Assembly (NCBI GenBank): GCA_013334925.1
Contig: JAAXWP010000001.1
Location: 62,001-126,000 of the forward strand
DNA from: Chlorobiaceae bacterium
GTDB lineage: Bacteria > Bacteroidota > Chlorobiia > Chlorobiales > Chlorobiaceae
Direction of reading: 5' to 3'
Length of the DNA: 64,000 bases
Numbering within the stretch: position 1 is the stretch's first letter; each line of letters starts with the position of its first letter. The position numbers and the translations under genes are program-made. This document shows, piece after piece, positions 59,227 to 63,567 of this stretch. A model generated the notes under the pieces. The model had not been told where the DNA came from and did no database searches. It worked only from the letters and a program-made list of their open reading frames with translations.

Positions 59227-59451
59227 ATGAACGAACGTTTCACATCACTCTGGAATATCACCTTCCTTGTTACCGGACCATTATGGGCGATGCTCGTCTG
59301 GATGATCTGGACCTCAGGACAGCTGCAAACCCCGGCGGATCGGCAGATTTTCCTGTGGGTGGTCATTCCGGCGTTTGCCTTCATCTACATCTTCGGGTTC
59401 ATCGTCGCCAGACGACATTTTAAAAAACTGGGCTCCGGATCCCCACGCTGA
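59227..59451 (+). CDS. small two-span membrane protein
   Basis: The 74 residues hold two hydrophobic helices (about 8-28 LWNITFLVTGPLWAMLVWMIW and 43-61 FLWVVIPAFAFIYIFGFIV) separated by a short polar loop. It starts 30 bases after the hydratase gene, so it may be co-transcribed. It ends 16 bases before the acetyltransferase start. No family is recognised. Confidence 0.55.
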   Translation: MNERFTSLWNITFLVTGPLWAMLVWMIWTSGQLQTPADRQIFLWVVIPAFAFIYIFGFIVARRHFKKLGSGSPR

Positions 59452-59467
59452 ACCAGTCCATTGCTGT

Positions 59468-59971
59468 ATGAACGTCATGGAGTATGCCATCGGGCCGATA
59501 TCGAATGAAGACCGCACATCAGTCATCGACATCTTCAACTACTATGTGGAGCATTCGTTCGCGGCATATCCCGACAAGCGATTGCCCTACGAGGCATTCG
59601 ACCGTTTCCTGCAGATGTCGGGCGGTTTTCCGACAGGGACGATAAGAGACCGGAACGGTATGGTTGCCGGTTTCGGGATGCTGAAGGCGCATAGCGCTAT
59701 GTCCGCATTTTCCCGGACCGTCGAATGGAGCTGCTTCATCCACCCGGATCATACCGGCAAAGGGCTGGGCAGGAAGCTGCTCGACTATCTCGAAAAAGGA
59801 GCGGTCGAACAGGGGATTACCAGCATACTGGCCAGCATATCATCCCTGAATACCGGAAGCATCGCGTTTCATGAGCGCAATGGGTTTACGGCTTGTGGCC
59901 TCTTCAGAAAGGTCGGACAGAAGCATGGTCAGGAGTTTGATACGGTCTGGATGCAGAAAATGCTCAGATAA
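59468..59971 (+). CDS. GNAT N-acetyltransferase, phosphinothricin-type (MnaT-like)
   Basis: The 167 residues carry the GNAT core with FGMLKAHSAMSAFSRTVEWSCFIHPDHTGKGLGRKLLDYLEKGAVEQG, the acetyl-CoA loop GKGLGRK and a late strand IASISSLNTGSIAFHERNGFTACGLFRKVGQKHGQEFDTVWMQKM. This end is characteristic of the Pat/MnaT subfamily, which acetylates amino acid analogues such as methionine sulfoximine. The start may be 59468 or the in-frame ATG at 59477. The upstream frame is a shadow of the preceding gene. Confidence 0.85.
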   Translation: MNVMEYAIGPISNEDRTSVIDIFNYYVEHSFAAYPDKRLPYEAFDRFLQMSGGFPTGTIRDRNGMVAGFGMLKAHSAMSAFSRTVEWSCFIHPDHTGKGLGRKLLDYLEKGAVEQGITSILASISSLNTGSIAFHERNGFTACGLFRKVGQKHGQEFDTVWMQKMLR

Positions 59972-60059: not shown

Positions 60060-62396
60060 CTACGGATTGATGCGTTCCATCAGGAGTTGCTGGTGTACAT
60101 CGTATCTGACACTCAATCCACTGTTATAGCCGTTGGTCTGCCGTTTGTAGGCGAGCAGGTAGAAGGAGAGCGACGTGAAATACTCGCCTGGCTTGATCCA
60201 GCCGCCCTCGGTTGGCGCGGGCTGGAGCGAGACCGTGATCATGCCCGCATCGCTGAACTCCTGGGTAGTGCCGGTGTAGCCGCTGCAACTGTTATGGACG
60301 CTGCCCGAGATACCATTGAACAACGTCGTCCGGCCTGCCGGAGTGGTTGGATGCGGTTGCGGTGTGGCGCCGGATGGGGTGGTTTTTGAAACCGGCTGGC
60401 TGACCGACAGGGAGATCATCGGGGCCGGGCATCGGGCCATCGACAAGTCGAAGAAATGTACAAAGCCCTCCGGGTCGTTCGCCTTGAAGGTCAGTTCGAT
60501 CGGGGTATTCAACTGGGCGTCGGTCAGACGGAACAGGCCGCAGCCGGAATTTTCCACCAGCGGATCGGTGAACGCCGGTGCCGTCATTCCGAAGTTGAGC
60601 GGATTGTTATGGATGAAGAGCGCGATCATGTCGGTTCCGTTCGGTACCGGATGGCCGGCTCCGTCATAGCAGTCGACCCTTATGTGGAAGGTGCCGGGAG
60701 TCCTGACCCCGCTGACGATATCGTACAGTGCGGTGTTCAGTTGGATGTACCGGTCGAAGTTGGAGAACTCCCAGTCGATGCCGTCCACAAAGATTTCCCG
60801 CTGGATGTTTTTATAGGCCGGAACATTCTGCGCCGGGCCGCCGTCCACATGCAACGCCTGGGTGAACGGGCCTACATCGTCGCCGATGTAACCGGGCAGA
60901 TGGCGTTTTGAAAACCTCGGATGCTTGTAATTCTCGCTGACGAACTGCCAGTTGGCGACGCCCGAGCGTTTGATCCGGATGGTATACCACCTGGCCGTAT
61001 TCTGTGCCACGGTTTTGGCCAGATCGTACATGCAACCTTTGAAATCGATCGTTCCGCACCATGGTGCGCATTCCACGGTAAACCCGGCCAGCGAACTGTT
61101 GACGCTGACGATGCCGTTCTCTTCCAGATAGTTGCTGTAACCGTAGCGCCTCAGGGCTGCCGCCGTGAAGGATGCCGCAGTGTTCTGGTTGCCGCCGATG
61201 AAGACATTGCCGAGACTGCCGATCAGGTTGCCGTTGAAGCACGCCGACGACGGCTGGATCTGCGATTTCGGCAGGCAGAGGTCGATTCTTTTCAGGTTGG
61301 GGACGTTGAAATAGGGCGCGCTTTCGTAAAGGACGTTGTACGGTGAAAAGCTGGTGACCTTCACGATGATGTCGGGATAGGCAACCACGTTGATGCTTTC
61401 TCCGGGAGCGATATCGCTGGTGTCTTCGATATCCGGAAACGTCATGTCGAAAGAGAAGCGGAAAATATAGTTTCCAGCCATGTCGGTGATCGTGTCTCCC
61501 AGCAGCCTGCGGTTGCCGTTTCCCGTGTAAGGACCACCGGCCAGCTCAGCAGCGGTACGGTCGTACTCCTCGAAAGAGAGCGTCGTGTTCGGTGCCGGTG
61601 CGACCGTGCAGTTCCGGGCATAGAGCCCATCGATAACCTTCGCCAGTTCAAGGAGGTTTGACGATTCGATAATCGTGCTCGAGGACTGCTTTCTGACCGA
61701 ATCGATCAGCTGGAAGTTCGCAACCGCGAATTCCGGGTCGGATCTCTCCCTGGTCGACTTGGCTTTTGTCTTTTGCGCAGGGGCCTCCGATTCGATGCGC
61801 TGATACAGCAGCTCGGTATTCGGTTGTGTCGCCTCATTATAGATGTCGATCACGATAGGCTTGAATGGAGCGGGATCGGGAGGCAGCGGGCCGATGATGT
61901 CTTCTTTGGTTCTCTCAGGATAGTACTCCTCGAGAATCTTCCTCAACCTGGCGTTTTTCAGCGCCTCCCTCAGGGCGGCACGGGTTTCGATAACGAATAT
62001 CTGTTTGCGGCAGGGATTGAAAATACAACGCCCGCTATACAGCGATACCTTTCCGTAAAGAATGAAATCGTTGATGTTTACAGGAGTTTTACAGGTCAGG
62101 ATGAGGTCATTGAAATCCTCATCGCCACCGGCGTCATTGGAGAGGATGTCGAATTCATAGTTGCCGCTGACCTGCCGGGGATTGGTCAGTCTGGTGTCGG
62201 ATAACTGGAATCCGGAGCCCGGATTGTTCTGGATCGCTATCGACCATTGCGCTCCGGTGACATGGACAGTTGTGCCTGCTGTGCCGTTGTGCACGCCATT
62301 TCCGGTCGTTGCGCCACTGACGATAAATCGCTGGTCAAAGCTGGCGCTTTTCGATTTCACTGAAACGGTCCAGTTGCCCTGCATTGAGATAATCAT
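60060..62396 (-). CDS. large orphan protein with a GDEDFNDLIL motif
   Basis: The 778-residue product lacks a signal peptide and membrane segments. Residues 1-105 (MIISMQGNWTVSVKSKSASF...FDILSNDAGGDEDFNDLILTC) form a beta-sandwich-like domain with the acidic D-x-G-x-D-x-D-F-N-D pattern seen in calcium-binding secreted proteins. A charged helical stretch (about 140-260) and a central beta region (about 300-420, LLGDTITDMAGNYIFRFSF, transthyretin/Cna-B-like) follow, with many cysteines near 440-470. The C-terminal part contains two further beta-rich segments. AGGAG precedes the ATG. I do not recognise a family and no homolog is named here. Confidence 0.65.
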   Translation of the reverse strand: MIISMQGNWTVSVKSKSASFDQRFIVSGATTGNGVHNGTAGTTVHVTGAQWSIAIQNNPGSGFQLSDTRLTNPRQVSGNYEFDILSNDAGGDEDFNDLILTCKTPVNINDFILYGKVSLYSGRCIFNPCRKQIFVIETRAALREALKNARLRKILEEYYPERTKEDIIGPLPPDPAPFKPIVIDIYNEATQPNTELLYQRIESEAPAQKTKAKSTRERSDPEFAVANFQLIDSVRKQSSSTIIESSNLLELAKVIDGLYARNCTVAPAPNTTLSFEEYDRTAAELAGGPYTGNGNRRLLGDTITDMAGNYIFRFSFDMTFPDIEDTSDIAPGESINVVAYPDIIVKVTSFSPYNVLYESAPYFNVPNLKRIDLCLPKSQIQPSSACFNGNLIGSLGNVFIGGNQNTAASFTAAALRRYGYSNYLEENGIVSVNSSLAGFTVECAPWCGTIDFKGCMYDLAKTVAQNTARWYTIRIKRSGVANWQFVSENYKHPRFSKRHLPGYIGDDVGPFTQALHVDGGPAQNVPAYKNIQREIFVDGIDWEFSNFDRYIQLNTALYDIVSGVRTPGTFHIRVDCYDGAGHPVPNGTDMIALFIHNNPLNFGMTAPAFTDPLVENSGCGLFRLTDAQLNTPIELTFKANDPEGFVHFFDLSMARCPAPMISLSVSQPVSKTTPSGATPQPHPTTPAGRTTLFNGISGSVHNSCSGYTGTTQEFSDAGMITVSLQPAPTEGGWIKPGEYFTSLSFYLLAYKRQTNGYNSGLSVRYDVHQQLLMERINP

Positions 62397-62614
62397 GGTA
62401 CTCTCCTGTTAAATTACCTGGTGACTCTGATAAACACTGGTGACGATCTCCAACTTTCGACAGTGACGACCGGCAGAACAGCACTCGAATTCCTGGAAAC
62501 GGATTCGGAACCATGGTTTGGTTTGTCTGTAAGGCCTTCATGGGAGCTGCTGAATCCCGAAAAAGCCGCCTGCAAAGTGTCACGTGATTGAACTCAAGCC
62601 ATTCTGCTTCTCCG

Positions 62615-62869
62615 TCAGCTCTCCTCTTCTCCGATATCTTCAATCTGGGTGGTTACCGATCCTGTACTTGCATTGCCGTATACGGGACTTTCATTCCGGA
62701 GAATGTCAATGACCCGGGCGAAATTTTCGGCGGTCATATAGGGCGTCTCCTCGCGTTTGTCGTCGAAAGTGGTGAAGTAGAATTTTCCCAGACTGATTTT
62801 CGGATCCCAGAGTGCCTGGTAAGCTTTCAACTGGATCCAACCGTTGGTTCCCTGTGCGCAATGAGGCAT
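62615..62869 (-). CDS. 84-residue orphan upstream of the large protein
   Basis: The product is MPHCAQGTNGWIQLKAYQAL... with a central KFYFTTFDDKREETPYMTAENFARVIDILRNESPVYG and an acidic end IEDIGEEES. It has a very good ribosome binding site (AAGGAGGGG, 7 bases upstream) and is followed after 218 bases by the 778-residue gene on the same strand, so they are probably one transcript. Upstream of the ribosome binding site is the leader caaaccaaacaaa, also found before the edge gene at 63875. No family is recognised. Confidence 0.6.
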   Translation of the reverse strand: MPHCAQGTNGWIQLKAYQALWDPKISLGKFYFTTFDDKREETPYMTAENFARVIDILRNESPVYGNASTGSVTTQIEDIGEEES

Positions 62870-63567
62870 GGTTCACCCCTCCTTTTGTTTGGTTTGCAGA
62901 TAAAACAACACGTACGACAATGAAACGGCGGTCATGACACCTGCACCGCCGGTATAAGATTCCACCATGACAGCAAGCTTCGATGAAGCGATGGTTTCCT
63001 GCCATGACCCGAACGTTGTCGGACGCTCATCGTCCGCAGAGTTCAGGCATATTCTGGCAGATCGAAAACCAGACGTAACGGCAGGGCGCGTTTCGGCAGC
63101 CTTATTTCAAAAAAAGAAAGGAGCCCCGTCGAAAATGGACTGTCAACGGCTGTACTGATGAACTGATAAGCCTGGGGACTCGATGATCCCGGGCAATGGG
63201 GATTGCTGCTGTCTGGCGTTAAAAGCGGACCTGCGAATCAGAAAAACCGACTGCCTAACCGGCAAATTTCGACTACTGACGGGTACTGCCTGAACTGCTG
63301 GGAGTACAGATAGAAAGGAAGGTATCAACACTCATACGATACGAAACAGGGCACATGACTGCAAGTCTCGTGTGTGAAGAGTATGACAATGGCGCTGCCG
63401 TGTGACATGATACAGGTGCATTAACTCATTATTTCTTCGCCAACAACAGGACTTTTATCAGTTGAGCATTTTCCGAGAAACGGGTTCGGCTGTTTTACAC
63501 CGGGAAAACAACACGTGCATGGATTTGGATGAACCCTTGAGTTCGGCACCGTCTTGGAGGCTTTAAG
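62870..63567. other. intergenic region between divergent orphan genes
   Basis: About 700 bases with no frame of recognisable coding quality. Both ends contain translation leaders for divergent genes. A possible micro-ORF follows at 63568. No long repeat or tRNA is seen. Confidence 0.5.

What the first reader, a model, noticed from the sequence alone, without database searches (positions are those of the whole stretch)
60060..62869. Orphan two-gene module: GDEDFNDLIL protein with a small partner
A 778-residue protein with an N-terminal acidic, possibly calcium-binding domain, Cna-B-like beta regions and no secretion signal lies downstream of an 84-residue protein with a very strong ribosome binding site. 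The combination is unlike any operon I recognise, so it is the best candidate for a new system in this window.
Basis: partly seen in the sequence, partly recalled or inferred. Interest (0 to 1): 0.6.

Follow-up and report, generated by a model that had tools for sequence, protein, structure and literature searches.

The report
Horizontally spread calcium-lectin-fold protein, partners lost

Summary
Both ORFs exist where stated; the two-gene module does not hold up. The 84-aa protein belongs to a small-protein family (LRNE...EPxGE) of the window's own bacterial family; its 85%-identical homolog sits beside an aldolase gene, with no 778-aa gene nearby. The 778-aa protein founds an undescribed family (no Pfam, NCBIfam, PHROG, PADLOC or PDB sequence match of weight). 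It is rare (1 of 37 genomes of its family, 3 of 297 of its phylum), yet 58-70% identical over full length in Planctomycetota, Myxococcota/'Deltaproteobacteria', Acidobacteriota and Bacteroidota; the window copy is sister to a Brocadiaceae copy. It thus moves horizontally and evolves under strong purifying selection. Elsewhere it forms a cassette with a DUF1360-like membrane protein (13 of 17 loci) and a CCGxKR protein (12 of 15 assessable); neither was found in the window's genome. It is not a canonical PA-IIL lectin: the C-terminal glycine carboxylate and sugar-contacting Asp96 are absent. Best mechanism: a non-classically released, calcium-dependent glycan-binding adhesin or matrix protein (export and ligand inferred).

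The parts
60060..62396 (-). 778-aa protein, intact; founding member here of a cross-phylum family with 11 conserved cysteines and no signal peptide
62070..62396 (-). residues 1-109: PA-IIL/LecB-fold calcium domain
   Evidence: AF2 pLDDT 92.3, pTM 0.84; the first 24 Foldseek PDB hits are all PA-IIL-family lectins
62106..62135 (-). residues 88-97 (DAGGDEDFND): predicted calcium loop; D88, D92, D94, N96, D97 match the spacing of LecB E95, D99, D101, N103, D104
   Evidence: sequence; conservation in 15 members; LecB ligands from PMC8752737; 7 of 20,000 shuffles of residues 1-110 give such a motif
62067..62069 (-). residue D110: carboxylate in all 15 members (14 D, 1 E), 13 residues after D97; candidate substitute for the missing C-terminal carboxylate (inference)
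61455..61499 (-). residues 300-314 (GDTITDMAGNYIFRF): Cna-B/carboxypeptidase-regulatory-like motif, not confirmed by any profile
62402..62407 (-). ribosome binding site AGGAGA of the 778-aa gene
62615..62869 (-). 84-aa protein; member of a small-protein family (LRNE...EPxGE) of the window's bacterial family; probably not functionally linked
62876..62886 (-). strong ribosome binding site (AAAAGGAGGGG) of the 84-aa gene

Best explanation
The 778-aa gene is a horizontally acquired, functionally constrained member of a new family. Its N-terminal domain folds like the PA-IIL/LecB two-calcium lectins and probably binds calcium through the DxxxDxDxND loop, and through calcium a glycan. The rest is a long, cysteine-rich, probably mostly beta, multidomain stalk. 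The usual unit is a three-gene cassette in which the large protein is (often translationally) coupled to a three-helix DUF1360-like membrane protein and followed by a small CCGxKR protein. I propose that the protein leaves the cell without a signal peptide, as related soluble lectins do, and works as a calcium-dependent adhesin or matrix protein that binds exopolysaccharide or surface glycans, the membrane protein helping to release or anchor it. In the window genome only the large gene is present, so it either uses a host route or works unanchored. The 84-aa gene is a neighbour by chance. Shown: family, distribution, cassette, absence of partners, selection, sister relation to Brocadiaceae. 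Predicted: fold and calcium loop. Inferred: glycan binding, export, role of partners.
For: 58-70% identity over full length in 11 genomes of four phylum-level groups, present in 1 of 37 genomes of the window's family and 3 of 297 of its phylum, 2 of 295, 1 of 392 and 1 of 396 in other samples. Window copy sister to Brocadiaceae, 100/99. As conserved as its homologs: 9 of 275 otherwise invariant columns changed, others 8-20. dN/dS about 0.06 in two close pairs. Cassette: DUF1360-like in 13 of 17 loci, CCGxKR in 12 of 15 assessable, 4-bp start/stop overlap of genes 1 and 2 in L002, L003, L004, L007, L009, L010. Fold: pLDDT 92.3; all first 24 PDB matches are PA-IIL, BclA, BC2L, RS-IIL, CV-IIL or thrombocorticin, E 5e-5 to 1.8e-3, next unrelated hit 6.8e-2. 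DUF4114 profile weakly matches 4 of 13 N-terminal domains, best E 0.0076; DUF4114 has been linked to PA-IIL/BclA/RS-IIL and its predicted calcium site is needed for exopolysaccharide-dependent twitching through PilY1.1 of Myxococcus (PMC9109919). Related soluble lectins BC2L-A, -B, -C are found outside the cell (PMC3164656).
Against: No sequence-profile link to PA-IIL. The sugar-contact Asp96 of LecB corresponds to A89 and to no acidic residue in any of 15 members, and the C-terminal glycine carboxylate that completes site and sugar contact in the known lectins cannot be present because the domain is N-terminal. TM-scores are only about 0.6. Export was not shown, and a cysteine-rich protein without signal peptide could also be cytoplasmic. 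The two usual partners are missing here.
Confidence: 0.45

Rival explanations
1. The calcium domain is structural only: calcium stabilises the fold but no sugar is bound, and the protein is a scaffold or envelope-assembly protein working with the DUF1360-like membrane protein.
For: Asp96 and the C-terminal carboxylate, both needed for sugar contact in the known lectins, are absent. In thrombocorticin one extra C-terminal glycine already abolished agonist activity (PMC9700728). D110 could close the calcium site within one chain.
Against: The ligand loop is kept in nearly all members across phyla, and the closest functional precedent (DUF4114 in PilY1.1) points to polysaccharide-dependent adhesion.
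Confidence: 0.25
2. The cassette is an antagonism system: the large protein is a secreted lectin-targeted antibacterial protein and one small gene gives immunity.
For: Rare, phylum-crossing distribution and tight linkage with a small membrane protein; proteases among neighbours.
Against: No toxin domain found by Pfam; full-length conservation instead of a variable C-terminus; the window and L005 carry the large gene without either small gene, which would leave the producer unprotected; no PADLOC hit.
Confidence: 0.1
3. A phage-derived structural module, such as a tail or head decoration, domesticated by bacteria.
For: DUF1360-like proteins match PHROG 781 and occur in phages, in one case between terminase and portal genes and in two viral contigs.
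Against: Large protein and CCGxKR protein are absent from 50,697 phage records and the large protein from 2.9 million viral contigs; the lectin domain has no convincing match in the viral fold library; no phage genes were recognised around the cassettes by eye.
Confidence: 0.07
4. One reading: a two-gene system of the 84-aa and 778-aa proteins.
For: Same strand, 218 bp apart, no terminator-like site in the gap on that strand.
Against: No linkage in any other genome in either direction.
Confidence: 0.05

Closest known systems
PA-IIL/LecB two-calcium lectins (LecB, RS-IIL, CV-IIL, BclA, BC2L, thrombocorticin)
   Same: Predicted fold; calcium-ligand spacing; no obvious signal peptide in the window protein, and related soluble lectins are released.
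   Different: Domain is N-terminal in a 778-aa protein; no C-terminal glycine carboxylate; Asp96 replaced by A89; no sequence-profile hit.
DUF4114 (PF13448), as in Myxococcus PilY1.1
   Same: N-terminal placement in a large protein and a predicted calcium loop; weak profile match in 4 of 13 members; literature links DUF4114 to PA-IIL lectins (PMC9109919).
   Different: Matches are far below the family cut-off; no PilY1 domain was found.
DUF1360 (PF07098), partner gene in other genomes
   Same: Partner matches PF07098 above the curated cut-off (27.3 vs 21 bits) and PHROG 781.
   Different: Function of the family is not known to me; one paper in the library mentions it; absent from the window genome.
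SpaA/Cna-B or carboxypeptidase-regulatory-like domains
   Same: A GDTxTDxxGNYxFRF stretch.
   Different: No profile hit in any of 15 members.

Membership tests
PA-IIL/LecB lectins | PA-IIL beta-sandwich fold | tested here: met
   Predicted structure only: pLDDT 92.3; first 24 PDB matches all from this family, TM about 0.45-0.66 by query length
PA-IIL/LecB lectins | Acidic and Asn calcium ligands at the spacing E95-D99-D101-N103-D104 | tested here: met
   D88-D92-D94-N96-D97; D88, D92, D97 in 15 of 15, D94 in 14 of 15, N96 is N or D; L009-like members have one extra residue after D88
PA-IIL/LecB lectins | C-terminal glycine carboxylate of the neighbouring chain completes the site | tested here: not met
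   Domain is followed by about 670 residues; C-terminus of the protein is ...INP; role of the carboxylate in PMC8752737 and PMC9700728
PA-IIL/LecB lectins | Sugar-contacting Asp96 | tested here: not met
   Equivalent position by spacing is A89; A, G or V in all 15 members
PA-IIL/LecB lectins | Profile match to the Pfam family | tested here: not met
   No hit at E up to 10 for the whole protein, nor for 13 N-terminal domains; no PDB sequence hit
PA-IIL/LecB lectins | Calcium-dependent binding of fucose or mannose | not testable with these tools
   needs protein
DUF4114 | Profile score above the curated cut-off | tested here: not met
   13.2 bits against 27 in the window domain
Three-gene cassette (large protein, DUF1360-like, CCGxKR) | DUF1360-like gene directly downstream | tested here: not met
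   Absent from the window and from the assembled genome; the control rang in B. subtilis
Three-gene cassette (large protein, DUF1360-like, CCGxKR) | CCGxKR gene | tested here: not met
   No hit in the genome at E up to 1; this search had no positive control of its own
Contractile injection or adhesin locus with known profiles | Profile hits to known components in the two genes | tested here: not met
   Pfam, NCBIfam, PHROGs, PADLOC without significant hits for both proteins

The most novel reading that the evidence does not exclude
A previously undescribed mobile three-gene adhesion or release cassette: a PA-IIL-fold lectin-like module that has been freed from its dependence on a C-terminal carboxylate (possibly replaced by the conserved D110), fused to a long cysteine-rich stalk, exported by a new route through a DUF1360-like membrane protein, and passed between phyla.
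Probability: 0.2. Interest if true: 0.7.

Novelty: new variant of a known kind. Interest (0 to 1): 0.45.

Why it matters
It puts a predicted fold and a testable calcium site on a protein family that none of the profile libraries covers, shows that the family is rare but moves between phyla with little change, and gives two proteins of unknown function (the DUF1360-like and CCGxKR proteins) a shared genetic context. If the N-terminal domain binds glycans, it would be a PA-IIL-type lectin site built without the C-terminal carboxylate that is called a hallmark of that family.

Tried and rejected
Pfam, NCBIfam, PHROGs, PADLOC and PDB sequence searches of both proteins: nothing significant. tblastn of the large protein in plasmids and phages and scans of viral contigs: none. 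Full-length AlphaFold model: poor beyond residue 106 (mean pLDDT 48), because only 12 close homologs could be used; the peptidylarginine deiminase, integrin and pilin matches are disregarded for that reason. The gasdermin-profile hit near L031 (E 0.005) is far below cut-off and was not pursued. Phage origin through DUF1360: partner only, no support from the large protein. CCGxKR in phages and plasmids: nothing significant. Recent-transfer test by composition: GC 55.9% and GC3 72% against 66.7 +/- 5.6% for window ORFs of 200 aa or more, so not atypical. Remnants of the two partner genes in the window: none by tblastn.

Full report
What is there. The window holds two minus-strand ORFs exactly as described: 60060-62396 (778 aa) and 62615-62869 (84 aa), both with good ribosome binding sites, the second an AAAAGGAGGGG. 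The genome (2.73 Mb, 101 contigs) encodes the bacteriochlorophyll a (FMO) protein with E 2e-222 and sits in a family of 2-3 Mb genomes, so this is very probably a green sulfur bacterium of the Chlorobiaceae; the name is my inference.

The 84-aa protein is not the partner. No locus with a relative of the 778-aa protein encodes it. Among 61 genomes it has one 85%-identical homolog, in a different genus of the same family (G036), between a 107-aa ORF and an ORF that looks like fructose-bisphosphate aldolase. More distant relatives of 78-116 aa share a C-terminal pattern, (V/I)xxxLRNExP(L/V)...TxxExxGE, in several genomes of the family; in those whose surroundings I read (L047-L052) the neighbours differ and no 778-aa gene is near. 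The pair in the window is best read as chance neighbours; I cannot exclude a joint transcript (no terminator-like site on that strand in the gap).

The 778-aa protein founds a new family. At E up to 10 neither Pfam nor NCBIfam matches it, PHROGs gives only a chance-level hit, PADLOC none. A scan of genome contigs returned 11 homologs that match 776-778 of its residues, 58-70% identical in the alignment: Brocadiaceae (Planctomycetota), a 'Deltaproteobacteria' bin placed in Myxococcota by the tool, two Acidobacteriota and seven Bacteroidota. Whole-genome searches found five more divergent homologs in another Bacteroidota family, one of them short, one genome matched in two pieces, and one distant homolog in a sixth setting. 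Prevalence is very low: 1 of 37 genomes of the window's own family, 3 of 297 of its phylum, 6 of 150 in family f9, 2 of 295 in the order of G308, 1 of 392 in the phylum of the Brocadiaceae genome and 1 of 396 in that of an acidobacterium. Several of these samples include the genome that seeded them.

It moves horizontally and is kept. In the tree the window copy is sister to the Brocadiaceae copy (support 100/99) and both group with the 'Deltaproteobacteria' copy (99/97), away from the Bacteroidota copies, although GTDB-style kinship puts the window in the same phylum as G054 and other Bacteroidota-type genomes. The window copy breaks 9 of 275 columns that are invariant in eight others; the others break 8 to 20, so there is no sign of decay. 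In two close pairs dN/dS of the large gene is about 0.05-0.06 (0.0295/0.513 and 0.0296/0.555). Its base composition is not atypical for the window, so the transfer is not recent or the donor was similar.

Its real partners. Clustering all ORFs of the neighbourhoods, only two other families recur widely: a 94-100-aa protein with three hydrophobic stretches that matches DUF1360 (27.3 bits, cut-off 21) in 13 of 17 loci, and an 84-102-aa M-x-C-C-G-x-K-R protein without any profile hit in 12 of 17, or 12 of the 15 where the contig reaches far enough (alignments). In six loci of the closer group the first two genes overlap by 4 bp. Pairwise identities of the large and DUF1360-like proteins go together (Spearman 0.50; 11 of 2000 permutations reach it), which fits joint inheritance but is not strong, because the short protein gives a poorly resolved tree. 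The flanks differ between loci apart from one pair (L032 and L035). Papain-like C1 proteases recur in four groups and a cysteine-rich 374-454-aa protein in three. The window and L005 lack both small partners; neither was found anywhere in the window's assembled genome.

The N-terminal domain is a PA-IIL-type fold. In the full-length model only the N-terminal 106 residues and parts of the C-terminus were predicted with fair confidence, and its best PDB matches were LecB-type lectins. Folded alone, residues 1-109 gave pLDDT 92.3 and pTM 0.84, and the first 24 PDB matches were all PA-IIL-family lectins, E 5e-5 to 1.8e-3, with the next unrelated structure at 6.8e-2. [quoted passage not shown] Asp96 contacts the sugar (PMC8752737). 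The window has D88, D92, D94, N96, D97 at the same spacing; three are acidic in all 15 aligned members, and the pattern appears in 7 of 20,000 shuffles. This mapping is by spacing, not by a superposition that I could inspect. DUF4114, which weakly matches 4 of 13 of these domains, has been linked to the same lectins and carries a calcium site needed for exopolysaccharide-dependent motility in PilY1.1 of Myxococcus xanthus (PMC9109919).

What it is not. It fails three features of PA-IIL lectins: no Pfam match, no acidic residue at the Asp96 position (A89; A, G or V in all 15), and no C-terminal carboxylate, since about 670 residues follow. In thrombocorticin a single extra C-terminal glycine abolished agonist activity (PMC9700728), so the sugar site, if there is one, must be built differently. 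A carboxylate at position 110 is present in all 15 members (14 D, 1 E) and is a candidate substitute (inference).

How it probably works. Related soluble lectins are released without detectable lysis (PMC3164656). By analogy I propose that the protein reaches the outside without a signal peptide, is stabilised by disulfides between its 11 conserved cysteines, and binds matrix or surface glycans in a calcium-dependent way, with the DUF1360-like protein as anchor or release partner where present. Only fold, loop, distribution, cassette and selection are computed; glycan binding, export and partner roles are inference. I give the mechanism 0.45.

Noticed in passing
62615-62869 and L047-L052, L055, L056: A family of 78-116-aa proteins ending in LRNExP(L/V)...E-P-x-GE(G)E, several paralogs in some genomes of the window's bacterial family, no Pfam hit at E up to 10.
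   Followed up: partly
L009:6799-7923, L012:6801-7925, L032:7519-8838, L034:11747-13108: A cysteine-rich 374-454-aa protein (IPCCPELIKD...CDVF at the start, RCCPP at the end) recurs beside the cassette and has no significant profile hit.
   Followed up: partly
L003:3364-4236, L004:12277-13254, L009:5764-6684, L010:10632-11555, L012:5766-6686: Papain-like C1 proteases recur within 8 kb of the cassette.
   Followed up: no
L031 (G559:C254:1-11238): Distant homolog (686 aa) beside a trypsin-like protease ORF, ORFs that look like an ATP-grasp pair and a B12/radical-SAM enzyme, and a 225-aa ORF with a sub-threshold gasdermin-profile hit (E 0.005).
   Followed up: no
L036:9295-10491: A 398-aa short form of the large protein, ending after the Cna-B-like motif, with CCGxKR but without the DUF1360-like gene.
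   Followed up: no
L008:8001-10274: The large gene is interrupted after about residue 694 while similarity continues to the end in another frame: broken gene or assembly error.
   Followed up: no
59375-59971: GNAT acetyltransferase gene directly downstream, facing the 778-aa gene.
   Followed up: no
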